Assembly (NCBI RefSeq): GCF_026914265.1
Contig: NC_069125.1
Span: 8,123,617-8,187,616 of the forward strand
Source: Mya arenaria
Lineage: Eukaryota > Mollusca > Bivalvia > Myida > Myidae
Length of the DNA: 64,000 nucleotides
Direction: 5' to 3'
In this document: positions 1,806 to 62,005 of the stretch, in pieces
Numbering within the stretch: position 1 is the first letter of the stretch
Layout: every line of letters starts with the position of its first letter
Notes under the pieces: generated by a model
Databases searched by the model: none
Seen by the model: only the letters and a program-made list of their open reading frames with translations
What the model was told of the DNA's origin: nothing
Program-made: the position numbers and the translations under genes

Positions 1806-2062
1806 GATCACCCTTTAGAAGCACGAAAAACCCGGGCCTATGTTCCAGTCGACTCTGCAAGGCTGGTTTCCTGTTCAGATTCCGCGATATCGGCAAACTG
1901 CTAAAAAGTCGTGACATGTTACAGGCCCCAAACTACCAAGCTGCGAAGGAGCTTGATGTGGATTATCAGGAAGCTAAGAAAGTGTTTCGAAACTTCACGC
2001 ACAAAATTGGTCTCGGACATTGGATACAGAAACCGAAAGAGATTGAGCAGTTTGTGTCATGA
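1806..2062 (+). CDS. Terminal exon of an unrecognised gene
   Basis: An open frame follows a good 3' splice site (pyrimidine tract then TTTCAG) and runs to a TGA at 2060-2062. Read from the splice site it gives about 85 residues, basic at first (around RSTKNP). The later part, SRDMLQAPNYQAAKELDVDY then KVFRNFTHKIGLGHWIQKP, looks helical and codon-like. I do not recognise the family. The upstream exons would lie left of the array, outside the window, or in the unresolved stretch 1121-1800. The alternative is a chance open frame of 122 codons. The clean acceptor and the stop at a natural end favour a real last exon, but this is inference. Confidence 0.4.
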
Positions 2063-10394: not shown

Positions 10395-11990
10395 CTAGCT
10401 TTCTTCATTCGTAGTTTGCTCCTCTCCAGAAACTGAGTCTGAATGTGCCTCTTGGTTGCCTTGTTGTACTGTTTTTGCGTTAATATACGCCAGCCATATT
10501 GGGGCCTCTTTTTGCACAAGCTTGTCTTGGCATATCACTCCATATTCTTTCAAGTACTGGTCATTGACTGCTCTCATGGCAATGAAGCAGTCAACAATTT
10601 TGGTAAAGAACTTTGAAGAATCATTTGGCCTAGAGCTTTTTAAGAATGACCTGAATATTTGCACAACCCTCAGCTGAATTTCATCAACTTTAGTAGAATC
10701 TTCCAGCTGACATCTGTCACCAAATGTCACTGCTATTGCCAACAACAAAGCTGTCTCCTCTTTCGTCAGATCTAATGCCTGAATTTTCTTGCACACATCA
10801 AATATAGAATCTATGAGATTGCGGGAATAGAAGATATCAGCTGCTTGGTCAATGTGGTAGGCTTTCCCAGTCTCTGTCAGTATCATTTGAAGGTTGGGGT
10901 CGTAACCTTTGTAAGTCAGAAATAAGAACACTTCAAAGTGTGAGGTCTTCAATAGGCTACACTGATCTTCAAGCGACAACGAAGAGAAACCTGGGACAAT
11001 ATTGGCGAATGCAATGTAACTGTGGAGTACAGGTTGGCAAGACATGGCCGACTGCCGTAGAAATTCCTGACGCCCATCGATGTCAATTCCTGTACTTTCT
11101 AGAAGAGCGAAGTACTCATCTTGAGGAACTGGTTTCATTTTGCCAAACACTTGTGCCTTAGCCATGAAGTTGTCATAATCTTCCTTCAACTTGGCCTTTA
11201 TCTGTATGTCAGAGACTATACTTCCAAATGGTCGAACCTGCTCCATTGATACAACCAGTTTTTCAATCAGTTCAAGCTCCTCGAGATAAGCTTGTGAAAT
11301 GTCTGGTCTGATAACTTTTACAGATAATTCTGATTTCTCGTCCATCACCACTTCAATTATTGGTGATGACTGAAAAGGAATGTCTTGTCGAGACGGCTGT
11401 AACAGAATATCACCAGGGCTGTTGCTACGTGTGGAAAGGTCATTTCTAGCACCATGAGAAAACTTATTTGTCTCTATATATTCCTCTCCCTTCGCTTCCA
11501 TTATCGTCTTAGTTCTACGCGACAATGTATAGCGCCCTAGACAAGCAGCTTCCCGAGACATTCCAACTTCCAGACATCGTTTATACCTACACCCAGAACA
11601 GTTCCCACGAACTTGTGAAGTCACTGGACAGTTTTTATCTTTAGAGCATTTGTACTCTTCTTTTCGAGTAAGGCACCTTCGAAAAAACGACTTACAGGAC
11701 TCACAACTATTTACACCATAATGAAGCCCAGTTCCTGGTCCCAAACAAACCCTGCATGGTGGAAAAGACAGCTTACACTGCTTCTGTGACACACCGATAT
11801 TTTTGGCCCTTTGTCGTTTAACAGTTTCAACTTTCCTCTTTTTGACCGGCAGTATAATAACTGGCTTTTCTTGTTCATCAGCCCCATATTTTGTATTCTT
11901 TTTATCAACCAGTAAGACATGTTCTGTCACTTGCATTACTGGCATGTCATTTGCATCATCAGAAGGTGACGTCTCTGTGTATTCTGACAT
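10395..11990 (-). CDS. Nuclear receptor, NR1-like, divergent P-box and AF-2
   Basis: A 531-residue nuclear hormone receptor, a DNA-binding transcription factor of the nucleus. Visible parts: a short acidic N-terminus; a basic KKRKVETVKRQRAK segment (about 50-63) that could be a nuclear localisation signal; a two-zinc-finger DNA-binding domain at about 79-144 with eight cysteines, GLHYGVNSCESCKSFFRR and CSGCRYKRCLEVGMSREA; a GRYTLSRRT extension like the GR box of Rev-erb/ROR receptors; and a ligand-binding domain at about 225-505 with the signature FANIVPGFSSLSLEDQCSLL. The P-box is CESCKS, where most receptors have CEGCKG. The helix 12 position reads IWLAYI (498-503), without the usual glutamate, and is followed by a Ser/Glu-rich tail of 28 residues. 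The whole frame is one exon. A 3' splice site (TTTTTTTCCAG) ends at 12017, 26 bases before the ATG, so an upstream leader exon is likely. Membership of the mollusc NR1P-type group is inferred. Confidence 0.93.
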   Translation of the reverse strand: MSEYTETSPSDDANDMPVMQVTEHVLLVDKKNTKYGADEQEKPVIILPVKKRKVETVKRQRAKNIGVSQKQCKLSFPPCRVCLGPGTGLHYGVNSCESCKSFFRRCLTRKEEYKCSKDKNCPVTSQVRGNCSGCRYKRCLEVGMSREAACLGRYTLSRRTKTIMEAKGEEYIETNKFSHGARNDLSTRSNSPGDILLQPSRQDIPFQSSPIIEVVMDEKSELSVKVIRPDISQAYLEELELIEKLVVSMEQVRPFGSIVSDIQIKAKLKEDYDNFMAKAQVFGKMKPVPQDEYFALLESTGIDIDGRQEFLRQSAMSCQPVLHSYIAFANIVPGFSSLSLEDQCSLLKTSHFEVFLFLTYKGYDPNLQMILTETGKAYHIDQAADIFYSRNLIDSIFDVCKKIQALDLTKEETALLLAIAVTFGDRCQLEDSTKVDEIQLRVVQIFRSFLKSSRPNDSSKFFTKIVDCFIAMRAVNDQYLKEYGVICQDKLVQKEAPIWLAYINAKTVQQGNQEAHSDSVSGEEQTTNEES

Positions 11991-13036
11991 TTTGATGTTT
12001 GACTGATCAGGTCATTCTGGAAAAAAAGAGGAAAAGGAAATAATTTATTATTATAATACAGTGTTGTTTTTTTTTCAAGAATTTTATGATTGGGGATGGG
12101 GCCTTACTGAGAATTTCAATTTTGCCTAAAAAAAAATGCTTTAAAGATATTAAGCATATTAAGAAAATAGAAGAAACCAACTTTTTCTAACAAAAAACTT
12201 TGGGGTCAATTTTAAAAATATATTAATTTAGTTTTTAAAACATTTAATTAAGAACTCTTTTTTTTATTTATAGGGAAAACAGTTTTAGCATTGGAAATGG
12301 GGCCAAAATAATAAGGCCAAATCACAGCCCCAAATTAGTCAGAAATGCAAGAACACGATGTGACAAATTCCCCCGAAAGGCCTCTTTTTACATTTAGCAG
12401 TTAAAATTTTGGCCTATGTGGACAGTCTTTAAAATATTACTTTAATAACAATCGCTAGCATTTTTAAAGAGCAAAATATGAACATTAAGATGATAAGTCA
12501 CTTCAAGATGGAGTGGATGTCAACAAGGGCCACCCACTGGGTTATTTGTTCACAAGTATGAGGTTCCAAACAGAAGTATTTGGTTCCTATCACAAGTATA
12601 AGGTTCCTATCACAAGTATAAGGTTTCAAAGCCCAAGTGTTCATCAGTTATTGACATCTCAAGATCAGCACGATCTTGACCTTTGACATTTGACTCAATG
12701 ACCTCAAAATTAATAGGGTTCATCTGGTTATTACAAACTTGTACCAAGTTTGAGTTCCCAAAGGGCCTCAGAGTTCTTAAAGTATTTATCCGTAACATTG
12801 TTAATTTAAGAAATAAATATTGTCAAACGAAACTTCTATTTCAATTTTGATACATTCATATTTTTTTTTCGCCACAATATTGCCAATTTATATGTCTGCA
12901 TGTAAATTTGATAAAATATTCAAAATATAGACAGTTATTTCTCTTCTTAAAGTATTTTTCACATTAAACGAGTTGACACTAACAGATACATAACCCTCTT
13001 TAGAAAAAAAAAATTCTGCATGGAAAACAGCCAGTT
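11991..13036. other. 5' flank and leader intron of the minus-strand receptor
   Basis: 11991-12016 is probable 5' untranslated sequence and 12017 onward its intron. Farther right, 12490-12800 is a diverged dispersed repeat with GATCTTGACCTTTGACATTTGAC and TCACAAGTATAAGGTTCCTA units (two or three copies near 12549-12629). No second exon located. Confidence 0.4.
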
Positions 13037-16516: not shown

Positions 16517-16550
16517 ATATATTGCGTTACCTTTGTAGACTGTTGTAACA

Positions 16551-18446
16551 ATGGCCAGTGAGGCTTGTGAAGTTATAGAAGAAAATGAAGTTGTTGAAGA
16601 AACAGAACTTGTGGAAGAAACTATTGCAGACTCCCCATCAACCCAATATGGTGTGGATGTGATTGAAATAGTCTACCCTCCCACTCCAGATCTCACTCCG
16701 GGGTCAGCCGATTCAGCAGAGTCCATCTCAAGTCCAGATGTCGGAACAGACTGTGTGCCTCTTCCAAAGTCTAAAACAATCCGCAGGAAGAAGAAACATT
16801 TTATTGTTCCAAATGAGGTGGAATCTCCTGGTTTGGTCTTACTTTCTCATCTTTGTGAGTTGTCTTCCAAAAATGCAAAAATTCAGGAATTGGCACTATC
16901 AGGTGCAGCTTTTCAGTCAGTATCATCTGCTAATGTTCAGGTTCAGTATATTCCACAGTTGAACGAGGCAGAGGTGGCAACACCTTCATGTATAACCATA
17001 GAACCAGCAATAGTATCAGCTGAAGATAGTGAATTTAATAATGCTGCCTCCCCAAGTGCCCCTAGCATGTATACAGTTGTTGAAAATGTGCCATACGATA
17101 TTAATATAACCACAGAAGAAGAATCTCAATCTCCAACAGACAAGACGAAAAAAAAATCTGGCAGCCGAGTAACCAAGTCATTGAAATTTCCTCCTTGCTT
17201 TGTCTGTGGAGGAAATGCCTCGGGGTCACATTATGGCGTCAATAGCTGTGAAGCCTGCAAGGGTTTCTTTCGAAGATATCTTCTCCGCAGTGAAGAGTAT
17301 AAGTGCAACAAGGGAGGTAACTGTGAAATCATTAACAGGAATAGGGGAAATTGTTCTGGCTGCAGATTACAAAAGTGCCTAGCATTAGGAATGGCTAAAG
17401 AGAAGTCAAAATTAGGGAGGTACACTCTGGCAAAGAGAACCGCTACAATAAAAGAAGTGAATAAATTGGAAGGCAAAGGTGATTTTGAATGTGTTAGGGA
17501 AGGTCATGTTTTGAGCGCACTGGCTAATATGTCAAATATGTCTTCCAATGACGGTAATCGAAATGCATTTAATTCAAAGGGAGAGAGGGTAACTGAAAAA
17601 GCTGGGACTGTTGATATGCAAGCACTTGTCTCAGATGACGTTATATCTGTTCTCATTCAAAAGGTACATGAACTACAACCCTATGGTCCCAATGTCAATA
17701 CTCAGGAAGAAGTAGAAGTTGCCTCAAGAAATCACTATGAATCTTACCTGAAGAAGGTTGAACTGTTTGGCGCCATGAAAGCAGTACCGAAAGAGGAGTA
17801 TTTCAAAGTGTACTCTGAACATGGAATTGATCTGGATGGGCGTATGGGAGATTTGAAAAGTTGCGGTCGGCACATTGACCGAGTGATTGAAAAGTATTGT
17901 GAATTTGCACGGACTGTGCCACAATTTTCCTCGCTCTCGACACAGGACCAGTCTAGTCTGCTGAAAATCTCAAGGACAGACTGGTTTATGGTGATCATGC
18001 ACCAAGGTTACAGGCGCAAGTACAACACCTTCATCAACTATGATGGAACTGTCAAACATTTTGATGAGGCTGTGGATAAATTCTTGTCGAGGAGCCTGCT
18101 GGTCAATATGTTGAAGATCTTTACGAAGTTGCAAGACTTGAACCTCTGTGAGGAGGAAATGGTTTTACTTGCGTCCCTTGTCATGCTGTCTCCCGATCGC
18201 TGTCAGTTGGAAAATCAGACCCTTGTAGAGGACCTTCAGGTTAATATATTCAGAGGTCTTCAGCGGGAATTCAAAAGAAGGCATCCTGATGGGGGTTTTA
18301 GGCGTTTAACAAAAGCCATTGACTGCGTGATCGAAATGCGAGAGGTCTCGGACGTGTATCTGCAAGAGTACAATGAGCTGTGTAAGGAAAAAGTCCTCTT
18401 GGAAGAAATGCCGCTATTGGCAGAATTCATTGTTGACAATGTCTAA
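16551..18446 (+). CDS. Nuclear receptor, NR1-like, EACKG P-box
   Basis: A 631-residue nuclear receptor. The N-terminal ~200 residues are acidic then Ser/Pro-rich (EENEVVEETELVEE; PPTPDLTPGSADS), as expected of a disordered AF-1 region. The DNA-binding domain starts at Cys216 and runs to about 281: CFVCGGNASGSHYGVNSC, then CEACKGFFRR (P-box EACKG) and CSGCRLQKCLALGMAKE. The extension has SKLGRYTLAKRT, similar in layout to the GR box of Rev-erb, ROR and E75. The ligand-binding domain occupies about 370-631, with the signature FARTVPQFSSLSTQDQSSLL and a helix 10 SPDRCQLENQ segment typical of NR1. Helix 12 carries LLAEFI (622-627), a fully acceptable AF-2 motif, so ligand- or coactivator-dependent activation is possible. 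One exon holds the whole frame; a splice acceptor ends at 16516, 34 bases before the ATG. It is a paralogue of the receptors at 10395 and 30161. The ligand is unknown. Confidence 0.95.
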   Translation: MASEACEVIEENEVVEETELVEETIADSPSTQYGVDVIEIVYPPTPDLTPGSADSAESISSPDVGTDCVPLPKSKTIRRKKKHFIVPNEVESPGLVLLSHLCELSSKNAKIQELALSGAAFQSVSSANVQVQYIPQLNEAEVATPSCITIEPAIVSAEDSEFNNAASPSAPSMYTVVENVPYDINITTEEESQSPTDKTKKKSGSRVTKSLKFPPCFVCGGNASGSHYGVNSCEACKGFFRRYLLRSEEYKCNKGGNCEIINRNRGNCSGCRLQKCLALGMAKEKSKLGRYTLAKRTATIKEVNKLEGKGDFECVREGHVLSALANMSNMSSNDGNRNAFNSKGERVTEKAGTVDMQALVSDDVISVLIQKVHELQPYGPNVNTQEEVEVASRNHYESYLKKVELFGAMKAVPKEEYFKVYSEHGIDLDGRMGDLKSCGRHIDRVIEKYCEFARTVPQFSSLSTQDQSSLLKISRTDWFMVIMHQGYRRKYNTFINYDGTVKHFDEAVDKFLSRSLLVNMLKIFTKLQDLNLCEEEMVLLASLVMLSPDRCQLENQTLVEDLQVNIFRGLQREFKRRHPDGGFRRLTKAIDCVIEMREVSDVYLQEYNELCKEKVLLEEMPLLAEFIVDNV

Positions 18447-20904: not shown

Positions 20905-21270
20905 TGGTGTTCATCATTGCTATCCTTGGTATCTTTATTATCAATATCCTTCGTGTGTTAATTAATTAATCATTGATATCCTTGGTGGCTTAATCATAGA
21001 TATCCTTGGTGTCTTAATCATTGATATCCTTGGTGTCTTAATCATTGATATCCTTGATGTATTAATCATTGATATCCTTGGTGTATTAATAATTGATATC
21101 CTTGGTGTCCTAATCATTGATATCCTTGGTGTATTAATCATTGATATCCTTGATGTCTTAATCATTGATATTCTTAGTGTTTTAGTCATTGATATCCTTG
21201 GTGTCACAAATATCATTGATATCATTGGTGTATTTATCGTCAATATCCTTGGTGTCCTTGTTGTTGATAT
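20905..21270. repeat. 24-bp tandem array
   Basis: About 15 copies of a 24-bp unit with core ATTGATATCCTTGGTGT and CTTAATC. Because 24 is a multiple of three, one minus-strand frame stays open (110 codons of an RISMI-type octapeptide repeat). I do not regard that as a gene. Confidence 0.9.
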
Positions 21271-21954
21271 GCAAAAACTTGTAACATTTGCCAAAACTCA
21301 AAAACTCTTCAAGATATTCCAATGAAGCTTGGTAACATACATGTATGTTGTCGTGGCAATTGTTGAGTGATTCCCGTTATTTGACTGAAAATAATATACA
21401 CCTTTGTCTACATGTATGTACCGTTGTCATGTGCCTTTTCTGGGCAACAATTTGTGTGCTTGCATTATGACGAAAGCCTGTACATTTACTCTTGTCTGGA
21501 TTTATCATAATAGCTTATATATTTCATTATCTGCTATTTTTTGGCAGGGATTTAGCCATATTTTTGCAATGGATTTGGTGGACTGTTATTACTGTAAAGG
21601 ATGTTTCATAATGTGTAGTTTTTCATTCATATATGGTGTTGGCTGCTATATAAATCTAATGTTAAGATAATATTTTAACCTTCATTCAAATTTATAAACA
21701 ATAAGTTGTTAGCATTCAATAATTTTACGTTTTTTCTGTTGGTAATATTTTTAAACTCAACTTAATCTTAATAACTTATAATCATTTTGTGTCTCTTATA
21801 CCATACATGTATATCATAAGCCCCAGTGCCAGTAATTGAATCTGCTTTGGAGGTATTCTTTGTACAGTTAAGCTTGTTTTTTTCATCTAGCTATTGGTAG
21901 TTACTAGTATGCTAATTGTTTATGCTTGGTGACTCCATATAATGTTGGTGTTAG
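21271..21954. other. Intergenic, no gene seen
   Basis: AT-rich, with no exon, RNA gene or terminal repeat recognised. An open frame of 88 codons here is Cys/Phe-rich, which is expected of chance frames in such DNA. Confidence 0.3.
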
Positions 21955-29324: not shown

Positions 29325-30158
29325 CATTAAAAAAATTGAGCAAATGCGGGACTGTTCGATTAAAAAGTTAATTTAAACTTAAATGACTGATGCTCCTGCG
29401 GCTGTGATATAGTGGCTGTTATATAATGTTTCAAGGCACAGCACATTTTTTATTCTGATTTTTTAGTTTAAACAATATTTTATTACCAAATTTTACATAC
29501 AAAAGATGATAATAATGGTTAATGGATTGGAAAACAAGTTATATAACTTATAGTAATTCCTTTTCATATTCTGGATATTTGATAGGAAATGTCTGACGAA
29601 ATGCACTTTTTAAGATAAAATTACACGCACATCCCGAGGTTCACGGACCTTGACCTATCGTCGGCAATTTATCGTCATAAACCGGGGTATCTGAGCTGAA
29701 AAGCTAGGACTACGGGCAGAGATAACGCTATATGTAGAACATCTAGATATAAATGAAACTTGGTTCAGTTCATGTAAATGTGGTATGATACTTGGACAAG
29801 TTCTTTAACGTAGATATATATTCAGTGTTAGAAGAAATTGAAAACTGAAACATATATAGTCATTTAAAGTACAGGCGAAATTTGGACGAACTTTCAACAA
29901 TTATAGGATTGGAATTTTGACGGTAAACAATCATTCATAATTTCATTACTTTTTTATATAAATAGCTGACAATTTTTGTTCTGTAGATGTTAAATGCATG
30001 ATATTTTTTTCTAGCAACACGAGGGTGCTTTTGTCAAAGTTAAATTGTGGAGTTCTTACGTAAATATTAAAACATTTGATAATGTGCAATATCTTGGTAA
30101 TTATTTAGTTTTACCAAATCTGCATACTTGTAATTAAGAATGACTTGTTTTTCATCAG
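29325..30158. other. 5' region of the third receptor
   Basis: No coding sequence. The last bases (TGTTTTTCATCAG, ending at 30158) form a 3' splice site, so a leader intron probably lies here. The leader exon and promoter were not identified. Confidence 0.4.
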
Positions 30159-30160
30159 AC

Positions 30161-32005
30161 ATGGACTTTGCACCACTCCTAAGAGATATTCTGCCAGAAT
30201 ATGCAGACGACAGTTTTGGCACAAGCTTGTCATCAGTCCAGGAAGCAGACGACAGCTTCAGCGCGAGCTTTGCATCCCTACCGGAAGCAGATGACAACGC
30301 ATTTCCGGACCCAGACGACAGTTTTATGAGTCTTTTAGCGGAACACGATGACTCGGAGAACTTCGGACTCTCGTTAATCGAAAACAATCATGACCTGTTT
30401 GATCTGATGGCTCCTCTGATGGACCCGACTCCGTTTTCACCGTTTCCATGTGACGACATCGAGGTACTTGGCGACACTTATACGGAACTAAACCAACACC
30501 AAACGTTTGAAGACACTGATCAAACTGATCAAGCTTCCCCATTGAGACAGCTTCTTCTTTCTAAGTCAAAGATGCGGGAATCTAGTGAATTTGAAGACGA
30601 AACACAGATTGATTCACCGAAAAGTAGAAAATCAAAGCGCTCGAAGTCACGAAGACAGGCGCGTGAACAAAAGACTCGCCGAGATTCATTATTGATGACG
30701 CGGGAGCCGGAAGTTATACAGCAGGCAGAAAGTCCGAAAGAGAAGTTTATATCAAAGGCGTTAAAATTTCCGCCATGCGCAGTGTGCGGCGGAAATGCTT
30801 CCGGTTTGCATTATGGGGTCAACAGCTGTGAAGCATGTAAGGGCTTTTTCCGCAGGTATATTATCAGAAACGAAGAATATAAATGTATAAAGGGAGGTAA
30901 TTGTAAAGTTGTGAATAAAAATCGCGAAAACTGTTCCGGATGTCGGTTGAAAAAATGTTTGGATCTTGGAATGTCAAAACAAAATTCGAAACTAGGACGC
31001 TATTCCCTCTCAAGAAGAACAGAGACCATCAAGAAAGTTAAAATATTGGAAGGAAAGGTAATCAACCAAAAGAAAGAAAAGACAGTTCCTGTTCCTGAAA
31101 ACCCCTTCAAGTTTGACCACACGTACAGCGGTTTGGGTCAATACAAGTCGTCTCCAGGACTAGAAGGGCTTGTCAGCGAGGACTGTTCGCCAGATGCAAT
31201 TATTGAAGACCTGGTGAACGCAATGGATAATATTCAACCGTATGGCCCCACAATCACGACACAGGACGAAATTCAGACTATTATTGGTTATCACCAACAA
31301 CGATACAAGTCAAAGCTAGAGGTTTATGGAGAAATGAAAGCAGTTCCGAGAGACGAGTACTACCAACTCCTTAAAGATTACGGAATTGACATAGACGGGA
31401 GAATTAAGGTGTTCAAAGAATACGTCCTCAAAATCAAACGAATGTCTGAGCGATATTACAACTTTGCTTCACAAATACCCGGGTTTACAAAGCTCGACTC
31501 TCATGACCAATCAAATCTCCTAAATGCTTCGAGGTGTGATTTCTTCATTACTTTAATGCATGAAGGCTACAGTGCCGAATATGACATTCTTCTCGCGAGA
31601 AACGGCGTTGCATACCACGTTGAAGAGCTAGCGGACAAATGTTTCTCGCGAACACTTATTAAAATGATTACCCAGGCATACCACCGTATTCAAAAGTTAG
31701 AGCTTACAAAAGAAGAAAAGGCTCTCCTCGTTGCGCTGACACTAGTTTTTACCGACAGATGTCGAATAGAAAATCGAGATCTTGTCGACAAAATGCAGTA
31801 TCTCATATCGGAACTTATCCGCTACCAATTAGAGCGAACATCAGGGCAAAACTCCTACAGCAGATTTGCGAAGTTTACCGACTGTCTTGTGTATCTAAGA
31901 GACGTAGCTGAACTTTACTGGCAGGAATATAGACAACTCTGCAAAGATGACGTCATTGTTGAACATGTTCCGATGGTGAAAGAGTTCCTAGCTGACGAAT
32001 GGTGA
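30161..32005 (+). CDS. Nuclear receptor, NR1-like, EACKG P-box, acidic repeats
   Basis: A 614-residue nuclear receptor. The frame is open from an ATG at 30140, but a splice acceptor (TTTTTCATCAG) ends at 30158, so I take the next ATG, at 30161, as the start (MDFAPLLRDILPEYADDSF). The N-terminus carries three acidic EADD/ADDSF repeats, a plausible AF-1 activation region, then a basic KSRKSKRSKSRR stretch before the DNA-binding domain (from Cys206): CAVCGGNASGLHYGVNSC, CEACKGFFRR, CSGCRLKKCLDLGMSKQ and SKLGRYSLSRRT. The ligand-binding domain covers about 345-614, with the signature FASQIPGFTKLDSHDQSNLL, FTDRCRIENRDL in the helix 9-10 region, and an intact AF-2 core MVKEFL (605-610). It is the closest paralogue of the receptor at 16551: same P-box and same spacing. 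Single coding exon. Ligand and targets unknown. Confidence 0.95.
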   Translation: MDFAPLLRDILPEYADDSFGTSLSSVQEADDSFSASFASLPEADDNAFPDPDDSFMSLLAEHDDSENFGLSLIENNHDLFDLMAPLMDPTPFSPFPCDDIEVLGDTYTELNQHQTFEDTDQTDQASPLRQLLLSKSKMRESSEFEDETQIDSPKSRKSKRSKSRRQAREQKTRRDSLLMTREPEVIQQAESPKEKFISKALKFPPCAVCGGNASGLHYGVNSCEACKGFFRRYIIRNEEYKCIKGGNCKVVNKNRENCSGCRLKKCLDLGMSKQNSKLGRYSLSRRTETIKKVKILEGKVINQKKEKTVPVPENPFKFDHTYSGLGQYKSSPGLEGLVSEDCSPDAIIEDLVNAMDNIQPYGPTITTQDEIQTIIGYHQQRYKSKLEVYGEMKAVPRDEYYQLLKDYGIDIDGRIKVFKEYVLKIKRMSERYYNFASQIPGFTKLDSHDQSNLLNASRCDFFITLMHEGYSAEYDILLARNGVAYHVEELADKCFSRTLIKMITQAYHRIQKLELTKEEKALLVALTLVFTDRCRIENRDLVDKMQYLISELIRYQLERTSGQNSYSRFAKFTDCLVYLRDVAELYWQEYRQLCKDDVIVEHVPMVKEFLADEW

Positions 32006-35119: not shown

Positions 35120-38100
35120 CTACCAAGTTTTTCCGAAATTCGGTAGCATCATGCTAGGGTTTTCTAGCGTCACGTCCGGGTCTGATTCCAAGATGCCTTT
35201 CAAAACAACCTTTACCCCCCTCTGTCGGGCCGCCTCTATGATAACCGCACGACTCTCCTTCCCAAGGGTGACGTCATAAATATCAAGGTGACGTAATCGC
35301 TCGCAGTTACACACTAAATCCACTATTGCACTGTCTGAAAACGTCCGAATGAAGCTGAGATTTAGCTCCTGTAGATTGGCCCCATACTTGATCATTGAAC
35401 GAACCCCTTTGTCTGTCACATGTTTACACGCCGCTAAACTTACTGATTCCAGCTTGTGTAGTTTCTGAAACAGAAAAGGGTGAATGTCTCGAATAAATAT
35501 ATTATGTCACTGGAAGAGAAACCAATGATGTATGCGAACGAAAGCACAACGTTTCTCCTCGTGGTTCAAACGGACCCTCAGCAATGAAATATCTATATAG
35601 AACTCAAAGATATCTTTATTTGTCGAGATTTTTGTCGCTTTTGTACATTCGTTCACATCGGCGGCAACCCCGGTCCTGTATTCCGTTTATACTACCATTA
35701 CAACGAATAATGGAACTCAATGAAACAGAGCGTCATATACTTAGTAGTATACAGGGGGCATCCGACAAAAAGGTCAATCACGCGCTACCAAGTATTTCCG
35801 AAGTTAGGCAGCATCATACAAGAGTTCTCTAACGTCACATCCGGGTCTCATTCCAAGAGGCCCTTCAAAACTACTTTAACCCCCCTCCCGGGCCGCCTCA
35901 ATAGCAGCTGCACGACTTCTTCCTTAAGAGTGACGTCATAAATATCTAGGTAGTCGCTCGAAATTACACACCATCCACTATCGCACTGTCTGAAAACGTC
36001 CAAATAAAGCTGAGATTAAGTTCCTGTAGGTGTTTCCTGTATCTGATAATTGAACGAACTACTAATTTAAAAAAACAAAAACAACAACACTATACGGCAC
36101 TTTTATAGGATCCTTAACCATATGAAATGCATGCACTGATTACATTGACATTTACTATTGTCAATAATAACATAGTTTGCGAAACATTACTTGTACGGGT
36201 ACGTACGTGCACGCGTGGGGTACTTTTTGTGCACTACGTCATCAAAGTATGCATCTATAGGTGTATACAATACCAGTTTGGAATGGCATGTACGATAGCA
36301 CGAGGAAAGTTATATAACGAGGAATTATTAATGCGAGTTTTAGCGATTGTACAGGTAAAAGAGTTGAGTGAAATGTCGCAAACGACTTTATAACACAACT
36401 ACAACTTAAAACATGTGCGTGTAGCTTCAGATCCAAGTACACGTCACGTTTCTCTAATAATTCAGAAACATCATCAGCTATGGTTACTTAATATTACCGT
36501 GTATATGGCTCAAGGTCCTATAGTTCTCCGTGCCCCTCCCAGTCCACTAGCTGTTGTCTGCCCCTCTTTTACCAATATCTGGATGTTATGCACCAGTCAA
36601 TTGTAACCACGCCCCTCCTCCAGGTAGTATACCGAGGATAGCGGGGGAAAAGGGCCATGTTTTAACATTCCAAGTGGCCCTGAAGTGTCGAGTGAATGCG
36701 GTGGTTTCTTTTTCACTCCGAAAATAGCGGGTAATGGGCCTTACCTAGGTATCCATGTGTGAGGGGGCATTTGGCGGGGATTTTACATGCAGTTTGTCCC
36801 CATAATGAGAACCGAAAGTCAAAGTCCCCGCTATTCCCCGGACCTGGGGGCCGTGGTTACAATTGACTGGTGCATTACTACACACAAAATTAGTGCACAC
36901 GTGTTTCGGTTATAATTTCTGAACAATTTTGGCTGAATGGTAGGGTCTACCCAAATAGAAAACTGTAAAATGACTGGGATCTGACGCCTGATATAATGCA
37001 AGGAAAAACACGGGGGAAAATCGACAACACGTACTCCAAACGCTACTTTAATCATGCAAATAACTCACCGACGTCGACGCGTATCTATTCATTAGGAGTA
37101 TCGATAGCAAATAGACTCCGATTTTCAACCACTTCTGTCAATTTATGGGAACTATACCTACCATAAATAATGTCTCCACTACGCTGTCGGTGACAATGTA
37201 ACCGCAATCCTTCAAAATAAGTACCCTGAGGTTTGGACAGTTCGACCACATTGTCTTTAGCATCGACTGGGTCAGACACACATCTTGAGAGACGTCTAAG
37301 TGCTCTAGTGCCGGTACCAGAAGAGCTTTAAAGTTTTTTGAGTTGAGCTTCTTTTTTCGCTTGAGCTGGGATATCATCTTACTGAAATATGTAACAGAGC
37401 CTTAAACAAAATATGTAAATAACAATAAAACAGCGGTGTTTCACATTCCAATATGTTCGTGTTATGCCCAACACTGAGGACAACGCCGCCGCTACCGACA
37501 ACATAAACACATCAAATATAGCCCTTGGTCCATATTACAGAAGCATATTAATACATTTTTAACATATTTTATCTTAAGTGTAAAATTTGGAATTCTTGTG
37601 TTTCGTTAAAAAATGATTCTTTAAAATTAAGTTTTCATTTTTAAAAACATAAGTGTCCATTTTTTAAATGCACAAATACACACAAAGCATAAGACTTTCT
37701 CCCAGTAAAAAAACAGCTAAGGAAATTGTTAAATTTAAGGAAATAATTAAATTTTAACTTAAGATGCTTCTGTAATATGACCACAGGGCTGCTTTCTTCG
37801 AGAAAAAAAACAAAACCTTAACATATCAAATAATTCTGGTCGTTTAATAAATTGGGCTTTGCGGCACGATAAAATATGGATGAAGTAAGAAGGTAAACAC
37901 CGCCACCACCGACGGCTATTACATCTACGCGATAACAACACGGTCGTTTATGAAATGCTGGCGTTTGTTAAACGATACTACAACTTAAATGAAAGACAGC
38001 TAGTCGGTTGACATTGACCAACACTGCAAAATTCTGCGAAAAAATGAGCGAAACATTGAAAAGCGCCCATTGCTCTTGCATTTTGAGTCTATACAGCATA

Positions 38101-39870
38101 CTTTTTTATGGTATTTAAACGGAAAAGCAGGCTGGTGGTTATCTTCCTATTGCCCTATACAAACCCTGGTGATGTTTTGAAATATCGTATGTTCTATGTC
38201 TATGTTCCACATATTACTGCTCACCTGAGCAAGAATTCATCAGGGAAATCTTGTAGGTCATAATCCTGAAGGTTGTCAGTAATGTACTCCAGGGTGGTCT
38301 GTAGGAGGGACCGCACCTGGGTTCCCTCGTGGAAAGGGCTCTGAAAAAGGGTTGCTAAACGTTTATCAAATGAAATGGGTATTTCTCTGAAAATTGTTCC
38401 CCGGTTTCTCTGATGTAAACGGGATTTCCTTTGCTGAACATTTTGACAAAACGGACACGATCATGGTCAGAATGCTTAACGGACACGATCATGGTCAGAA
38501 AGCTTAACGGACACGGACACGATCATGGTCAGAAAGCTTAACGGACACGGACACGATCATGGTCAGAATGCTTAACGGACACGATCATGGTCAGAAAGCT
38601 TAACGGACACGATCATGGTCAGAAAGCTTAACGGACACGATCATGGTCAGAAAGCTTAACGGACACGATCATGGTCAGAAAGCTTAACGGCCACGATCAT
38701 GGTCAGAATGCTTAACGGACACGATCATTGTCAGAATGCTTAACGGACACGATTATGGTCAGAAAGCTTAACGGACACGACCATTCATGGTCAGAAAGCT
38801 TAACAAGTATTCCGAGAATCGTAAAATTCATGAAATGTCTTCATTTCTATCGATATCTGAATGAACCCAGAAAACTTCAATCATCCTCTTGATTGAAAGT
38901 ACTGAAATTATACAACACTTTAAAAGTTACAGAATACACCAAGTACATTCAATACTTTTCCATACCGACTCGAAGTTTCGACCAAACTGCGCCCTGACAA
39001 GCGTCCGTCCAACCTCATCCTTCCGCTCAAACCTGAGCGTCTTTCGGTGGCTTAGGGACGTCTCCACTTCCGCCAGAACTTCCGGTTCGCTGTGGTGTCG
39101 CATCATCCCAACGCTCATAACGTCCTTGATGTCAACGTAACCTGTATAAAAAGGAGGGAAAACTTTATTACCAGAGTAAGTGCATATGATTTGTTTGCTT
39201 TGATGGGATAGGGAAGGAAGTCCAAGTCTAAACGTTCCTTCATAAAGCCATATTTTTCAGTTTAGCCCGCTTATGGATCAAAAGTATATGAATATTGATG
39301 TCAACGAGAAGGAAAATTTTTCACAATAAATGGCACTCATTCCAAAGATGTAAAATATAATCAATTCGGAAAGGCATGCACACATCGCGTCTTAGTTAAT
39401 ACCACTAACGATATCTGAGAAGAGTCGATGTGTCTGTCGTTTAAAGAAGTATATTGAATGTTCCGACTTAATCGCAGTAACTGATAATACATATGTGATC
39501 TTGAAAAGGTTTAAGAGTGTATATTGCTTTATTAAGGCTAAATTCCATAGAGCTTCAAAACAAATTACATACATCGAGTACATGACGCATTGCTTCCTAC
39601 GTGTCACTATAGTTCAAAGTCACTATTAAATTAATCACTCTGGCGCTCTGGCAGTCTAAAGCTACGATTTGACAGTTCTGAATAAAAAAGGCAGACAATT
39701 CGTAATAACAAAACCATTCCAAATATACATACAATGTACAATGTATTTATACCTCCTTCATGAACTGTGAGGCCCTCCTTAACTGCCCCATACCGCAAAA
39801 TGTAACACAGTCGTTTAGGAAGCCTGTCGGCGTACTTGTCTTCCTTTCCACATCTAATAGTGTCTGCCAT
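35120..39870 (-). CDS. TRPT1/KptA-like winged helix fused to AMN1-like LRR protein
   Basis: Five coding exons on the minus strand: 39870-39753, 39141-38966, 38340-38225, 37381-37162 and 35464-35120. All have GT-AG borders and matching phases, giving 324 residues. Residues ~10-98 match the N-terminal winged-helix lobe of tRNA 2'-phosphotransferase (TRPT1/KptA) in order and spacing: RLPKRLCYILRYGAVKEGL, GGYVDIKDVMS and TLVRAQFG. The usual LRHG reads LRYG and the RANQGHS-type motif reads RAQFGRN. The ADP-ribosyl-transferase-like C-terminal lobe is absent, so this is unlikely to be an active phosphotransferase. Residues ~99-324 resemble AMN1: a SLLQTTLEYITDNL ... LQDFPDEFLL entry segment, then Cys-type leucine-rich repeats (LEHLDVS, PNLRVLILKDCG, LESVSLAACKHVTDKG, LQELNLS, LRHLDIYD). 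LRR proteins of this class bind partners. The third exon has no in-frame ATG, which supports joining. An acceptor 21 bases before the ATG (at 39892) implies a leader exon. Confidence 0.72.
35780..36060 (-). pseudogene. Decayed duplicate of the last LRR exon
   Basis: Minus-strand sequence closely similar to 35120-35420: GACGTTTTCAGACAGTGC, ATATTTATGACGTCAC and GAGGCGGCCCG segments in the same order. Several small indels shift the frame and an in-frame TGA interrupts the part equal to LESDPD. It lies in the intron before the intact last exon, in the same orientation, so it is a failed tandem exon duplication. Confidence 0.85.
36120..36395. repeat. Second copy of the block at 33984
   Basis: See 33984-34315. 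This copy has an extra ~100 bases in the middle (GTACGTACGTGCACGCGTGG...), including alternating purine-pyrimidine sequence. Lies in the intron before the last exon of the TRPT1/AMN1-like gene. Confidence 0.6.
36587..36879. mobile_element. MITE family B copy 3
   Basis: TGCACCAGTCAATTGTAACC and CAATTGACTGGTGCA ends with TTA on each side. Sits in the last intron of the TRPT1/AMN1-like gene. Confidence 0.88.
37520..37790. mobile_element. Inverted-repeat element (TCATATTACAGAAGCAT ends)
   Basis: GGTCCATATTACAGAAGCAT on the left and ATGCTTCTGTAATATGACC on the right, about 215 bases apart, with TTAAG-rich interior. It lies in the intron between the third and fourth coding exons of the TRPT1/AMN1-like gene. 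Family unknown. Confidence 0.65.
38448..38804. repeat. 28-bp tandem array in an intron
   Basis: About 12 copies of a 28-bp unit (ACGGACACGATCATGGTCAG then AAGCTTA), two with an extra GGACAC. Located in the intron between the second and third coding exons of the TRPT1/AMN1-like gene. Confidence 0.93.
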
Positions 39871-46480: not shown

Positions 46481-46589
46481 CAGAGCTTCTCAATCTCTTA
46501 TTTTAGCAGATACCCTGCCTTTTTCTGAGAAGACTTCTTCTGGAACAAATGTTCTTAGGGAGTAGAGTGTGTAAATCTTAATGCACCGC

Positions 46590-49480
46590 TCCATAATATT
46601 TATTTAGTGTCGGATTTGGTTACAAGACCTGTAACTGTTGGTATTCGACCTTTCTTACCTTTCAAGGGTGTCCATTTACTGCTAGGCAATGACTTAGCTG
46701 GAGATAAGGTTGTGGTTAATCCACTTGTACATAACACACTAAATATGGATCAGACCTTTGACCCCATTGAGGAGGAAATACCTGACCTTTATCCATCTTG
46801 TGCAGTTACTCGAGCTATGGCACAGAAAGCCATTCAGAATGGCAATCATTCAGATGTTGACTTATCTGATTCTTTCATTGGTAAGATTTTTTTATAAGGC
46901 TAATGAACCTTCTACCCCTAGTCTGGCGGAATCTCAGTCAGACTTGTCAATGTCTGATCAGTCTTTCAGAGTCAAAAGACAGAGGTCATGACTAATCCAG
47001 GAACAACATAATTCTCCCGAGATTTCGAAATTGTTTCATAGAGCTTTGATTGAAGATGAAACTTCACAAGACTGAGTCTGTTATTATGACAAGAATGGGA
47101 TTTTAATGAGAAAATGGCGACCGTTGGATGCGTCAGCTAAAGATGAATGGGCTGTACACCACCAAAGACATATCGCAATGAAATACTTAGTTTAGCCCTT
47201 GCACACCCATGTCTGGTCATTTAGGTATTAACAAGACCTATCACAAGATTCTTAGTCATTTCTTCTGGCCTGGCATTAAAGAAGATCTCTCTAAGTATTG
47301 CAAAAGTTGCAATATTTGTCAGATGGTAGGGAAACCCAATCAAACGATACCAAAAGCTCACTTCGAACCCATTCCTGCGTTTGGTGAACCTTTAAGTAGG
47401 ATCTTAATAGACTGTATTGGTCCTTAACCCAGAACTAAGTCAGGTTCTTAGTATCTCTTGACAATCATATGTGCTTCAACCCGCTTCCCAGAAGCCATTC
47501 CTTTAAGAAATATCAAGACCAAAACAATTGTTAAGGCCCTTGTGGAATAAGGTTATGCTTGAATAAGGGATTAAACAGTATAAATCTTCGGCTTATTATC
47601 CAGAAAGTCAAGGTGCACTGGAACGGTTTCACCAAACATTGAAAAATATGATTAGATCATACTGTTTTGACAAGGACTTTTAAAAGGACTGGGATGAGGG
47701 CATTCATTAACTGTTATTTGCTGGAAGAAAATCTGTGCAAGAATCGCCTGGTTTCATTCCATTTGGACACACTGTTCGTGTTCCACTGAAATTATTAAAA
47801 GAGAAAATTCTTTCTGATGATGAAAATTCACTGAATTTGCTTCAGTATGTTTCTGACTTCAGAAATAAATTATCAAAGGCATGTGATTTGGCTCGTTTAA
47901 ATTTCAAAATTACACAGGGCAAAACGAAATTAAGATATGACAAGAATGCAGTAGAAAGAAGTTTTAAGCTTGGTGACAAGGTCATTGCTCGTTCGCCTAT
48001 TTCAGGAAAAGTAAAAACCTTTACAAGCTAAATACTTTGGTCCATATACAATTGACAAAAAGGTTAGTGACTTTAACTATGTTATAAACACTCCTATGAT
48101 AGAGATAGCTCAATTTTAAAACCTGTATCAGCTTTATCCCACATGAACAATGTATTCAAGAATCAGAATATAAAGGTTGTGAACAATTTGAAAAATCTGA
48201 TCCTGGTTCAGTCAAACTTCAAAACTCAGACATTTTGAAAAAAATAGACCAGAAACTTGCACACCTTGATCCACAATAACAATCTGAGATAAAAATCTAA
48301 TTCAGGAGTATGAGCACTTTTTCCCTGACATCCCCACAAGAACTCTTATAATTTAACATGATGTAATTCTTGAAGACTCCAAACCAATCAAACAACATCC
48401 TTACAGAATGAATCCATTAACACAGGAGTATCTCCGAAAGGAAGTGAACTATCTTTTGTTCAATGATTTCATTGAACCAAGCCAAAGTAATTACAGCTCT
48501 CCTTGTACATTGGTGCCAAAACCAGATGGAACATACGTACTGTGTAAAGGCTATCGCAAAGTGAACTCTGTTACAAAATCAGATTCTTTCCCAATTCTTA
48601 GAATAGACGACTGCATTGACAATGTTGGAAAAGCAAAATGTGTTACAAAATTTAATCTTCTAAAAGGATTCTGGCAGATTCCACTGACTGAGAGAGATAA
48701 CTGCATTTGTTACACCTGATGGTCTTTACCATTACATGGTGATGCCATTCGGAATGAAAAACTCACCAGCTACATTTCAACGGCTTATAATCATGATACT
48801 CGCAGATCATCATGGTTGTGATGCCTATATTGACAATGCCATTATCCACACCGACGAGTGGAATGATCATCTACAGACAATCCGAGATTCTTCAATCGAC
48901 TTACAAGTGCCAACCTGACAATTAATCTAGCAAAAAAGTGAGTTTTGTCATGCTACTTTGACATTTCTTGGTCATGTTGTGGGACAGGGTCAGGTTAAAC
49001 CTATGGATGCTTAAGTCATAGCTATCTCTGAATTTCCTTTGCCTACTTGTAAAAGACAACTGATGCGTTTTCTCGGTATGGCTGGTTATTACAGAAAAAA
49101 ATGATAGTACTTTTCTGAAATCATAGAACCTTAAACGAATTTACTAAAGAAAGGCACAAGTTTGTTTGGAGTGACAGATGTCAAAATGTACTTGATACAG
49201 TGAAAGTCAAATTGTCAAATTGTCAGTTGACGCCAGGAGGACATTGATGCAGGAGCTGTATGAGTGCAAGAGGACAACAATGGAGTTGAACATCCAGTGT
49301 GTTACTTTTCTAGAAAGTTTAACAAACACCAGAAAAAAAATCAACAATAGAAAAAGAGTGTCTTGCTCTCTCTGCAGTGACACCTATTATTGTTGTCTTC
49401 AGTGACCACAATCCACTTAGTTTTCTACACAACCTCAAAAACAAAAATCAAAGATTACTGAGGTGGAGTATATATATAGT
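46590..49480 (+). mobile_element. Ty3/Gypsy-type element remnant, Gmr1-like order
   Basis: A fossil of a Ty3/Gypsy-type retroelement. Recognisable parts in order: the C-terminal part of an aspartic protease (GVHLLLGNDLAGDKVV, about 46660-46720); integrase with its zinc-binding region and core start (about 47200-47700); a GPY/F-like segment near 48030-48070; reverse transcriptase (about 48350-49090); and RNase H (about 49130-49470). Integrase upstream of reverse transcriptase is the order known from Gmr1-like members of the Ty3/Gypsy group, the reverse of ordinary Gypsy. No gag is recognisable and I found no pair of long terminal repeats; the 3' border could extend to ~49790. The copy is broken many times (about ten or more breaks) and is old to moderately old. 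Confidence 0.85.
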
Positions 49481-52165: not shown

Positions 52166-52437
52166 CTAATATGTACATATGCACTATAAGAAACTGCAAA
52201 AATAGCTAGATGCATCTTGAGGGGATCGAACCACGACATTTTGCTCTGCAGTTTACTCATTGTAAAAAAAACAAGATGAAACATAAATGTTATTCATTTA
52301 TTATTTGTTATCCATAGTATAAACAGCTGGCAGTTCTTTGGATACCATTACGATTGTTCATTTATATAAAACACCGTCCAGCGGTGACCAACTACAGTAA
52401 GAATAACGCCTCGGCACCACATCGTGTCCTTAACGTT
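52166..52437. other. Short intergenic stretch with a tRNA-like half
   Basis: GGGGATCGAACCACGACA near 52219 is a minus-strand B-box-like sequence without a clear A box. No gene. Confidence 0.3.
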
Positions 52438-53392
52438 CACAGCGAAGGTCGACCATAGAGTTTACATGAGGCGCCACAACGCTGTGAAGGTCAACCAAAG
52501 AGTTTACATGAGGCGCCACAACGCTGTGAAGGTCAACCAAAGAGTTTACATGAGGCGCCACAACGCTGTGAAGGTCGACCATAGAGTTTACATGAGGCGC
52601 CACAACGCTGTGAAGTTCAACCAAAGAGTTTACATGACGCGCCACAACGCTGTGAAGGTCGACCATAGAGTTTACATGAGGCGCCACAACGCTGTGAAGG
52701 TCGACCTTTAGAGTTTTATGAAGCGCAACAATGTTTCCTAAGGTCGACCAAATACATTCACGAGGCGCAGCAGCGTCTCCTTAACGCTCACAGTCAAGGT
52801 CGACATTAGAGTCTCATGAGGCGCCACAACGCTGTGAAGGTCAACATTACAGTTTCATGACGCGCCACAACGCTGTGAAGGTCAAGATTACAGTTTCATG
52901 ACGCGCCACAACGCTGTGAAGGGCAAGATTAGAGTTTCATGACGCGCCACAACGCTGTGAAGGTCAACATTACAGTTTCATGACGCGCCACAACGCTGTG
53001 AAGGTCAACATTACAGTTTCATGACGCGCCACAACGCTGTGAAGGTCAACATTACAGTTTCATGACGCGCCACAACGCTGTGAAGGTCAACATTACAGTT
53101 TCATGAGGCGCCGCAACGCTGTGAATGTTGACCTTGGAGTTTCATGAGGCGCCGCACCGCTGTGAATGTCGACCATAGAGTTTACATGAGGCGCCACAAC
53201 GCTGTGTATGTCGACCATAGAGTTTCATTAGGCGCCACAACGCTGTGTATGTCGACCATAGAGTTTACATGAGGCGCCACAACGCTGTTTAGGTCGACCT
53301 TGGAGTTACATGAGGCGCCACAACGCTGTTAAGGTCAAGATTACAGTTTCATGATGCGCCGCAACGCTGTGAAGGTCGACCTTGGAATTTCG
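52438..53392. repeat. 42-bp tandem array, two unit types
   Basis: About 22 copies of GGCGCCACAACGCTGTGAAG followed by either GTCGACCATAGAGTTTACATG-type or GTCAACATTACAGTTTCATG-type sequence. The types are clustered in blocks, a sign of local amplification. Since 42 is a multiple of three, both strands stay open for up to 95 codons (VDHRVYMRRHNAVK repeats); not a gene. Each unit carries an AAGGTCA- or AAGGTCG-like motif. Confidence 0.95.
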
Positions 53393-60912: not shown

Positions 60913-61064
60913 AAACACCTTATTTCAAAAACAGTAGGGTGGGGCCTAATTCATAGGTAGGGTCGATAACTCGAACCAAATGCAATTACATTGAAGTAAC
61001 GATTCATGACACTTGACCTGACAAAGATAAGCAGTTCTTAATCATTTTAGTTAAAGACATTGCT
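60913..61064. other. Short unique spacer
   Basis: Between the nested MITEs and the 39-bp array; no feature seen. Confidence 0.3.
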
Positions 61065-62005
61065 ATATAATCTGGCAACATGAGTACCATCTTTTATTTG
61101 AATATATAATCTGGCAACATATGTACCATATTTCATTTGAATATATAATCTGGCAACATATGTACCATATTTCATTTGAATATATAATCTAGCAACATAT
61201 GTACCATATTTCATTTGAATATATAATCTGGCAACATATGTACCATATTTCATTTGAATATATAATCTGGCAACATATGTACCATATTTCATTTGAATAT
61301 ATAATCTAGCAACATATGTACCATATTTCATTTGAATATATAATCTGGCAACATATGTACCATATTTCATTTGAATATATAATCTGGCAACATATGTACC
61401 ATATTTCATTTGAATATATAATCTGGCAACATATGTACCATATTTCATTTGAATATATAATCTGGCAACATATGTACCATATTTCATTTGAATATATAAT
61501 CTGGCAACATATGTACCATATTTCATTTGAATATATAATCTGGCAACATATGTATCATATTTCATTTGAATATATAATCTGGCAACACATGTACCATATA
61601 TTCCATTTGAATATATAATCTGTCAACATATTTCATTCGAATATATAATCTGGCAACATGAGTACCATATTTTATTTGAATATATAATTTGGCAACACGA
61701 GTACCATATTTTATTTGAATATATAATCTCGCAACATGAGTACCATATTTTATTTGAATATATAATCTGGCAACATGAGTACCATATTTTATTTGAATAT
61801 ATAATTTGGCAACATGAGTACCATATTGTATTTGAATATATAATCTGGCAACATATGTACCATATTTTATTTGAATATATAATCTGGCAACATGAGTACC
61901 ATATTTCATTTGAATATATAATCTAGCAACATATGTACCATATTTTATTTAAATATACAATCTGAAAACATATATGTACCATATTTCATTTGAATATATT
62001 GAAAT
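61065..62005. repeat. 39-bp tandem array
   Basis: About 24 copies of a 39-bp unit TATAATCTGGCAACATATGT, then ACCATATTTCATTTGAATA. The left part is highly uniform (ATATGTACC form) and the right part uses ATGAGTACC and TTTTATTTG variants. Both strands remain open over long stretches (up to 172 codons) only because 39 is a multiple of three. Confidence 0.97.

What the first reader, a model, noticed from the sequence alone, without database searches (positions are those of the whole stretch)
35120..39870. A TRPT1/KptA-like winged helix joined to an AMN1-like LRR domain
Five minus-strand exons join with correct splice sites and phases into a 324-residue frame. The first two exons spell the N-terminal lobe of tRNA 2'-phosphotransferase (KRLCYILRYGAVKEGL, GGYVDIKDV, LVRAQFG) and the last three an AMN1-like LRR. 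The phosphotransferase catalytic lobe is missing, and the family's LRH and QGHS motifs are altered to LRY and FGRN. The LRR part has no in-frame ATG of its own. A dead tRNA-repair lobe reused as a binding or targeting module for an LRR protein would be a new domain architecture as far as I know.
Basis: partly seen in the sequence, partly recalled or inferred. Interest (0 to 1): 0.75.

Follow-up and report, generated by a model that had tools for sequence, protein, structure and literature searches.

The report
Clam gene: tRNA-repair lobe joined to LRR
A clam chromosome carries a well-formed five-exon gene that appears to join the RNA-gripping half of a tRNA-repair enzyme, without its catalytic half, to a leucine-rich-repeat protein, a pairing that looks new but still needs RNA data and other species to confirm it.

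Summary
The five minus-strand exons (39870-35120) are as described: GT-AG introns, compatible phases, 324 codons. Joined residues 16-97 match Pfam PTS_2-RNA above cut-off (38.1 bits against 26), on model positions 5-84 of 177 only; exon by exon they do not ring. No NAD+-lobe exon was found in the window. Three TRPT1 genes of the same genome end the RNA-lobe exon at the equivalent place in phase 0, near the published lobe boundary. So this looks like TRPT1's RNA-lobe exons joined through that intron to LRR exons. The LRR half resembles AMN1 but is not its orthologue. Exon 5 shows purifying selection against a dead copy of itself (28 of 48 differences synonymous, 13.4 expected). The lobe cannot be catalytic, yet keeps both arginines that clasp the 2'-phosphate. 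My reading: a chimeric gene making a non-catalytic binding protein, perhaps a ubiquitin-ligase receptor. No RNA-seq or other bivalve genome was available, so the join in RNA and its age are unproven.

The parts
39753..39870 (-). Exon 1: start codon and first part of the Tpt1 RNA lobe (MADTIRC...LPKRLCYILRYGAVKEGLTVHEG)
   Evidence: splice sites and frame; Pfam; A at -3 and G at +4 around the ATG; codon score above all 1291 background segments. An acceptor-like TTTTTCAG lies about 21 bases upstream, so a 5' UTR exon further up is possible; none was identified.
38966..39141 (-). Exon 2: second part of the RNA lobe (GYVDIKDV...LVRAQFGRNFES), phase 1 in, phase 0 out
   Evidence: equivalent exon in the three TRPT1 genes of this genome, also phase 1 in and phase 0 out, 170 nt each; codon score above all 425 background segments.
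38450..38804 (.). 28-bp minisatellite, 12.1 copies, inside intron 2 (38341-38965)
   Evidence: Tandem Repeats Finder.
38225..38340 (-). Exon 3: AMN1-type head before the LRRs (SPFHEGTQVRSLLQTTLEYITDNLQDYDLQDFPDEFLL)
   Evidence: best of 70 phase-0 continuations of exon 2, by a small margin; head scores 47 against recalled human AMN1, shuffles 23.8 +/- 4.5, 0 of 500 as high.
37162..37381 (-). Exon 4: rest of the head and first LRRs (KMISQL...VVETLFM)
   Evidence: the only close match in the genome is itself, other matches are generic LRR hits of E 1.2e-7 or weaker; codon score reached by 12 of 177 background segments.
35120..35464 (-). Exon 5: last LRRs, C-terminal tail and stop codon
   Evidence: Pfam LRR models below their cut-offs; alternating strands and helices in AlphaFold2 without alignment, mean pLDDT 63.1; purifying selection.
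35785..36059 (-). Dead tandem copy of exon 5 (its bases 61-345) inside intron 4, 80% identical, 4 gaps (10 bases) and an in-register TGA

Best explanation
A protein-coding chimeric gene of a bivalve. The two exons for the RNA lobe (winged helix) of a TRPT1/Tpt1 paralogue came to lie upstream of the exons of an AMN1-type LRR gene, and they splice together through the phase-0 intron that in TRPT1 separates the RNA lobe from the NAD+ lobe. The product has no NAD+ lobe, so it cannot remove 2'-phosphates. It most likely works as a non-catalytic binding protein: the RNA lobe holds a ligand (RNA or another phosphorylated ligand) and the LRR holds a protein partner, possibly bringing the bound complex to a cullin ubiquitin ligase as yeast Amn1 and ZYG11B do. 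Shown here: the exons, the homology, the exon-boundary match, no detectable NAD+-lobe exon in the window, and selection on exon 5. Inferred: one transcript (about 0.8), ligand binding by the lobe (about 0.35), ligase-receptor role (about 0.3).
For: Frame and splice sites. PTS_2-RNA above cut-off on the RNA lobe only. TRPT1 exon 2 at C11 (two copies) and C17 is also phase 1 in and phase 0 out, and the next exon of the C11 copies starts at model position 85-86. In CthTpt1 the RNA lobe is residues 1-85 with a winged-helix fold (PMC6333775, passages). No NAD+-lobe exon in the window and no PTS_2-RNA match on C4 at E up to 10. Exon 3 is the best of 70 continuations of exon 2. Of 49 ATG-donor pairs in intron 2 that could feed exon 3 in phase, none has a GTRAG donor. 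Exon 5 against its dead copy: 28 of 48 differences synonymous, 13.4 +/- 2.9 expected, 0 of 2000 simulations as high. LRR half against recalled human AMN1: blastp E 3e-7. Yeast Amn1 binds Skp1 and Cdc53 and drives Ace2 ubiquitination (PMC6181423, passages).
Against: No transcript evidence. Selection was shown for exon 5 only, not for the TRPT1-derived exons or the join. Exon by exon the lobe does not ring with PTS_2-RNA, and by tblastn it finds only itself in its own genome, so the link to TRPT1 rests on the joined profile match and exon structure. Exon 2 could also splice to 37377, skipping exon 3 in frame. The LRR could start in intron 2 or at M139. No AATAAA or ATTAAA within 2500 bases after the stop. 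The tblastn for NAD+-lobe exons has limited reach: a C11 HGT piece finds the C17 HGT exon only at E 0.011, so a diverged exon could be missed. The head fails the strict BC-box consensus, and no F-box appears in Pfam. Window exons are not among the 22 matches of the AMN1 query at E up to 0.1. Whole-genome counts are lower bounds.
Confidence: 0.6

Rival explanations
1. Two neighbouring transcription units: a TRPT1-derived fragment (exons 1-2, ending in the intron) and a separate LRR gene starting in intron 2 or at M139. The in-frame join is accidental.
For: Phase agreement at one junction has a one-in-three chance; intron 2 has many ATGs; exon 4 carries an in-frame Met.
Against: Exon 3 is open in phase 0 and is the best continuation of exon 2; reading exon 3 back meets a stop near 38460 without an ATG; none of 49 in-phase ATG-donor pairs has a GTRAG donor, though weaker GTTAAG donors recur in the minisatellite; starting at M139 would discard the AMN1-like head; the two halves are 625 bases apart on one strand.
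Confidence: 0.15
2. A decaying TRPT1 duplicate whose first two exons survive by chance beside, or spliced into, an LRR gene, with no function of their own.
For: Loss of H19 and QGHS, 23-31% identity to the genome's TRPT1 lobes and no tblastn match to them; the duplicated exon 5 shows that the locus rearranges.
Against: After divergence this deep, neutral decay should have left stops or frameshifts in 98 codons (inference), yet exons 1-2 have none and the strongest codon scores; splice sites are intact; two key arginines and a lysine remain.
Confidence: 0.15
3. Assembly artefact: a misjoin brings TRPT1 exons next to LRR exons.
For: Not excluded without reads; a minisatellite sits between the halves.
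Against: Phases match; no close copy of the lobe or of the LRR head was found elsewhere in the assembly; the intron is short.
Confidence: 0.04

Closest known systems
Tpt1/KptA/TRPT1, RNA 2'-phosphotransferase (PF01885)
   Same: RNA-lobe sequence, exon phases and lobe boundary; K11, R18 and R68 equivalents kept (K19, R26, R89 in the window protein).
   Different: No NAD+ lobe, so no HGT motif and no R121; H19 to Tyr27, S10 to Pro18, K66 to Leu87, QGHS to FGRN; LRR domain in place of the NAD+ lobe.
AMN1 (LRR protein)
   Same: A head followed by cysteine-type LRRs of about 26 residues (by eye); blastp E 3e-7 to recalled human AMN1.
   Different: The best AMN1 match of this genome is a separate gene on C6 whose exon boundaries in the head differ (by eye); an RNA lobe in front and a C-terminal tail of its own.
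ZYG11B/ZER1, CRL2 substrate receptors
   Same: ZYG11B has a VHL box directly before its LRR domain (PMC13379236, passages); Pfam LRR_Zer-1 E 0.005, below cut-off.
   Different: No ARM domain in the window protein; box motifs degenerate; RNA lobe added.
LRRC9 (ART-like domain between LRRs)
   Same: Another pairing of an ADP-ribosyltransferase-related domain with LRRs, judged most likely a pseudoenzyme (PMC7955679, passages).
   Different: LRRC9 carries an ART-like fold (the kind of lobe missing here), not the Tpt1 RNA lobe.
KptA-Nudix fusion of Bodo saltans virus
   Same: A KptA domain in a fusion protein (PMC9503650, passages).
   Different: There the ART (catalytic) domain is present and the partner is Nudix.

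Membership tests
Tpt1/KptA/TRPT1 | Pfam PTS_2-RNA above gathering score | tested here: met
   38.1 bits against 26 for the joined product, model 5-84 of 177 only; not found exon by exon in the genome search.
Tpt1/KptA/TRPT1 | Arg-His-Arg of the RNA lobe (R18, H19, R68 in CthTpt1) | tested here: not met
   R26 and R89 kept, His is Tyr27; residue roles from PMC6333775, passages and section 9.
Tpt1/KptA/TRPT1 | NAD+ lobe with HGT motif and fourth Arg | tested here: not met
   Absent from the 324 aa; tblastn of five NAD+-lobe pieces finds none in the window, best window hit E 0.088 inside the nuclear-receptor ORF (limited reach, see report).
Tpt1/KptA/TRPT1 | RNA-lobe exon phases of the genome's TRPT1 genes | tested here: met
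   Phase 1 in and phase 0 out in 4 of 4 exon 2s examined (window and three TRPT1 loci); the window's entry is shifted by one codon and its end is one codon longer by eye.
AMN1 | Orthologue of AMN1 | tested here: not met
   A better match (four pieces, 34-60% identity) lies at C6:77711999-77722434; the window exons are not among the 22 matches at E up to 0.1 (recalled human query).
AMN1 | AMN1-type head plus cysteine-type LRRs | tested here: inconclusive
   Head scores 47 against recalled human AMN1, shuffles 23.8 +/- 4.5, 0 of 500 as high; but 28 against this genome's own partial AMN1, 104 of 500 as high. The whole LRR half beats 500 of 500 shuffles against both, which many LRR proteins might do.
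CRL2 substrate receptor | BC-box consensus (recalled: S/T-L-x-x-x-C-x-x-x-hydrophobic) | tested here: not met
   SLLQTTLEYI has Thr for Cys (by eye on the sequence).
CRL2 substrate receptor | CUL2-box, hydrophobic-Pxx-hydrophobic-xxx-hydrophobic, as quoted in PMC13061254 | tested here: inconclusive
   FPDEFLLSK fits except for Lys at the last position (by eye; consensus seen in passages).
SCF F-box/LRR protein | F-box domain | tested here: not met
   No F-box model listed by Pfam up to E 10 for the head (HMMER filters drop most weak matches).
RNA-binding ligase receptor | Binding to EloBC, Skp1 or 2'-phosphate RNA | not testable with these tools
   Needs bench work.

The most novel reading that the evidence does not exclude
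The lobe is a retooled reader of RNA 2'-phosphate (or of a related phosphorylated nucleotide): it keeps both arginines that clasp the 2'-phosphate and the base-stacking lysine, drops the histidine that contacts only the 3'-phosphate, and hands the ligand-bound complex to a ubiquitin ligase through the AMN1-type LRR. That would be a sensor of broken or abnormally spliced RNA coupled to protein turnover in clams.
Probability: 0.1. Interest if true: 0.8.

Novelty: new variant of a known kind. Interest (0 to 1): 0.45.

Why it matters
What Tpt1 does in organisms without fungal-type tRNA ligation is not obvious, and its removal from E. coli and mouse had no phenotype (PMC6333775, passages). A natural protein that kept only the RNA lobe, with the phosphate-clasping arginines, would say that the lobe has a use of its own and would give a ready test protein for 2'-phosphate binding. 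It would also be a clean example of domain shuffling through an intron that sits at a lobe boundary.

Tried and rejected
Is the TRPT1 match chance? Rejected on the Pfam score of the joined product and the shared exon phases. Is the missing catalytic lobe further along? Five NAD+-lobe pieces found no exon in the 64-kb window (loci L029 and L030, also searched, lie inside the window), and the PTS_2-RNA search lists nothing on C4 at E up to 10. Is the LRR half AMN1 itself? Rejected. Is there a second copy of either half? None found: the lobe finds only itself; the LRR head finds itself and two weak hits, each with a stop inside (C17, E 4.5; C12, E 9.7), of which part of one was printed and neither was analysed. 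Generic LRR hits elsewhere were taken as other LRR proteins and not classified. Structure of exon 2 alone gave a two-helix model of no use. Exon 5 alone gave a low-confidence LRR-like model; Foldseek listed LRR proteins of ligases and NLRs among others, also unrelated proteins, with 0 of 867 matches at E 0.001 or better. Rfam and tRNA scans of the window were empty. Papers: searches (20 of 35 listed; 14 of 14; 10 of 33; 10 of 10,992, none of them naming TRPT1) listed no paper describing a TRPT1/KptA RNA lobe with LRRs; most listed papers were not opened.

Species: 1.216 Gb in 18 contigs fits Mya arenaria (1.22 Gb in 17 scaffolds, PMC10663159, passages). This is an inference, not an identification.

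Full report
Observation. The five exons lie at the stated coordinates on the minus strand. They join with GT-AG introns and phases 1, 0, 2, 0 into 324 codons and a stop. The ATG has A at -3 and G at +4. An acceptor-like TTTTTCAG lies about 21 bases upstream, so a 5' UTR exon further up is possible; none was identified. Codon scores were trained on the three nuclear-receptor ORFs of the window and compared with open non-coding segments of the same length: 0 of 1291, 0 of 425, 11 of 1361, 12 of 177 and 0 of 19 segments reach exons 1 to 5. The training set is small and the segments overlap one another.

TRPT1 half. Pfam PTS_2-RNA matches residues 16-97 of the joined product at 38.1 bits (cut-off 26), model positions 5-84 of 177; the 98-aa lobe alone gives 39.5 bits. 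Tpt1 chains are also found by phmmer in the PDB (7yw4 E 2.7e-5). Against this, a six-frame search of the whole genome with PTS_2-RNA lists 9 matches at E up to 10, all on C11 and C17 and none in the window, so the window exons are too diverged to ring singly. Three loci are over the cut-off: two on C11 about 91 kb apart and one on C17. All three show exons of the NAD+ lobe: HGT and HIHF exons on C11, and HGT, HIHF and LSPG exons on C17. Their RNA-lobe exon 2 is 170 nt, enters in phase 1 and leaves in phase 0. The window's exon 2 is 176 nt with the same phases; by eye its entry is one codon later and its end one codon longer. The next exon of the C11 copies starts at Pfam position 85 or 86. In CthTpt1 the RNA lobe is residues 1-85 and the NAD+ lobe 86-182, and the RNA lobe is a winged helix most like La (PMC6333775, passages). 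So the clam gene stops using TRPT1 at an intron placed at the lobe boundary, and phase 0 on both sides lets LRR exons follow in frame.

NAD+ lobe. Five pieces of the NAD+ lobe of the C11 and C17 genes find no exon in the window; the best window hit has E 0.088 and lies in a nuclear-receptor ORF. The reach of this test is limited: between the true genes a C11 HGT piece finds the C17 HGT exon only at E 0.011, and the C17 LSPG piece finds no C11 counterpart in the fetched loci.

Active site. In CthTpt1, R18 and R68 make bidentate bonds to the transferred 2'-phosphate, K66 and Y80 add single bonds, R68 and K11 sandwich the base, R18 also touches the 3'-phosphate, and H19 touches only the 3'-phosphate (PMC6333775 section 9). 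By the alignments and the positions printed, the window has K19, R26 and R89 for K11, R18 and R68, and Pro18, Tyr27 and Leu87 for S10, H19 and K66. R121 lies in the missing lobe. Catalysis is therefore excluded on the known mechanism; binding is not. Keeping three of these six residues is suggestive only and was not tested against chance. The C17 TRPT1 of this genome has Lys at the R68 place, so R68 is not absolute even in a copy with an NAD+ lobe.

LRR half. The best PDB matches are F-box/LRR proteins and RAD7 (FBXL2, FBXL17, RAD7, SKP2). Pfam LRR models match below their cut-offs. Against recalled human AMN1 blastp gives E 3e-7. The head before the repeats scores 47 against recalled human AMN1 (shuffles 23.8 +/- 4.5, 0 of 500 as high) but only 28 against the partial AMN1 of this genome (104 of 500 as high). 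The AMN1 match of this genome is a separate gene at C6:77.71-77.72 Mb, and the window exons are not among the 22 matches of that query at E up to 0.1; its exon boundaries in the head differ by eye. The window gene is thus at most AMN1-type, not AMN1. Yeast Amn1 binds Skp1 and Cdc53, has an atypical F-box and promotes Ace2 ubiquitination (PMC6181423, passages); ZYG11B places a VHL box before its LRRs (PMC13379236, passages). The window head fails the strict BC box and misses one position of the CUL2 box, so the ligase role is an analogy.

Selection. Intron 4 holds a dead copy of most of exon 5 with its stop codon (35785-36059, 80% identity, 4 gaps of 10 bases in all, an in-register TGA). Of 48 substitutions, 28 would be synonymous in exon 5, where 13.4 +/- 2.9 are expected (0 of 2000 simulations as high). 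Third positions carry 28 of the 48 differences. This shows purifying selection on this reading frame after the duplication, in exon 5 or in both copies for a time. It says nothing about exons 1-2.

One gene or two. Exon 3 scores best of 70 acceptor-donor pairs that could continue exon 2 in phase 0 within about 2 kb (8.8 bits); the next are an inner acceptor of the same exon (8.4) and a splice to 37377 (7.3), which would skip exon 3 and stay in exon 4's frame. Both leading options join the lobe to the LRR frame. Reading exon 3 backwards meets a stop near 38460 without an ATG. Of 49 ATG-donor pairs in intron 2 that could splice into exon 3 in phase, none has a GTRAG donor, though weaker GTTAAG donors recur in the minisatellite. 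M139 in exon 4 could start a headless LRR. There is no AATAAA or ATTAAA within 2500 bases of the stop, a small point against the 3' end of the model. I put one transcript at about 0.8.

Novelty. Searches listed no paper pairing the Tpt1 RNA lobe with LRRs. The library lacks most subscription papers, most listed papers were not opened, and no eukaryotic protein database was available, so annotated relatives in other molluscs may exist. Both halves are known families; the pairing and the loss of the NAD+ lobe make it a new variant rather than a new kind.

Noticed in passing
10398-12011 (-), 16539-18443 (+), 30134-32002 (+): Three single-frame nuclear-receptor ORFs (zf-C4 plus ligand-binding domain in each) within 22 kb: apparently an intronless cluster.
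   Followed up: partly
1691-2059 (+): Open frame matching the C-terminal part of an adenosine-deaminase (editase) domain, Pfam A_deamin 40.6 bits, model 265-329/329: perhaps the last exon of an ADAR- or ADAT1-like gene at the window edge.
   Followed up: partly
46559-48716 (+): Retroelement-like open frames: a weak reverse-transcriptase match at 48357-48716 (RVT_1, below cut-off); observed only.
   Followed up: no
38450-38804: 28-bp minisatellite of 12.1 copies inside intron 2, with recurring ATGs and GTTAAG sites.
   Followed up: partly
20965-21322, 52388-52780, 61050-61948: Repetitive stretches with long open frames on both strands; the tandem-repeat finder was not run on them.
   Followed up: no
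L026:2732-3361 and L027:2062-2502 (C11): Upstream of the two C11 TRPT1 copies, about 91 kb apart, lie open frames rich in Gly, Arg, Gln and Ser that may be an N-terminal extension.
   Followed up: no
L028:4899-5068 (C17): TRPT1 copy whose RNA-lobe arginine R68 equivalent is Lys (IKATQGHS).
   Followed up: no
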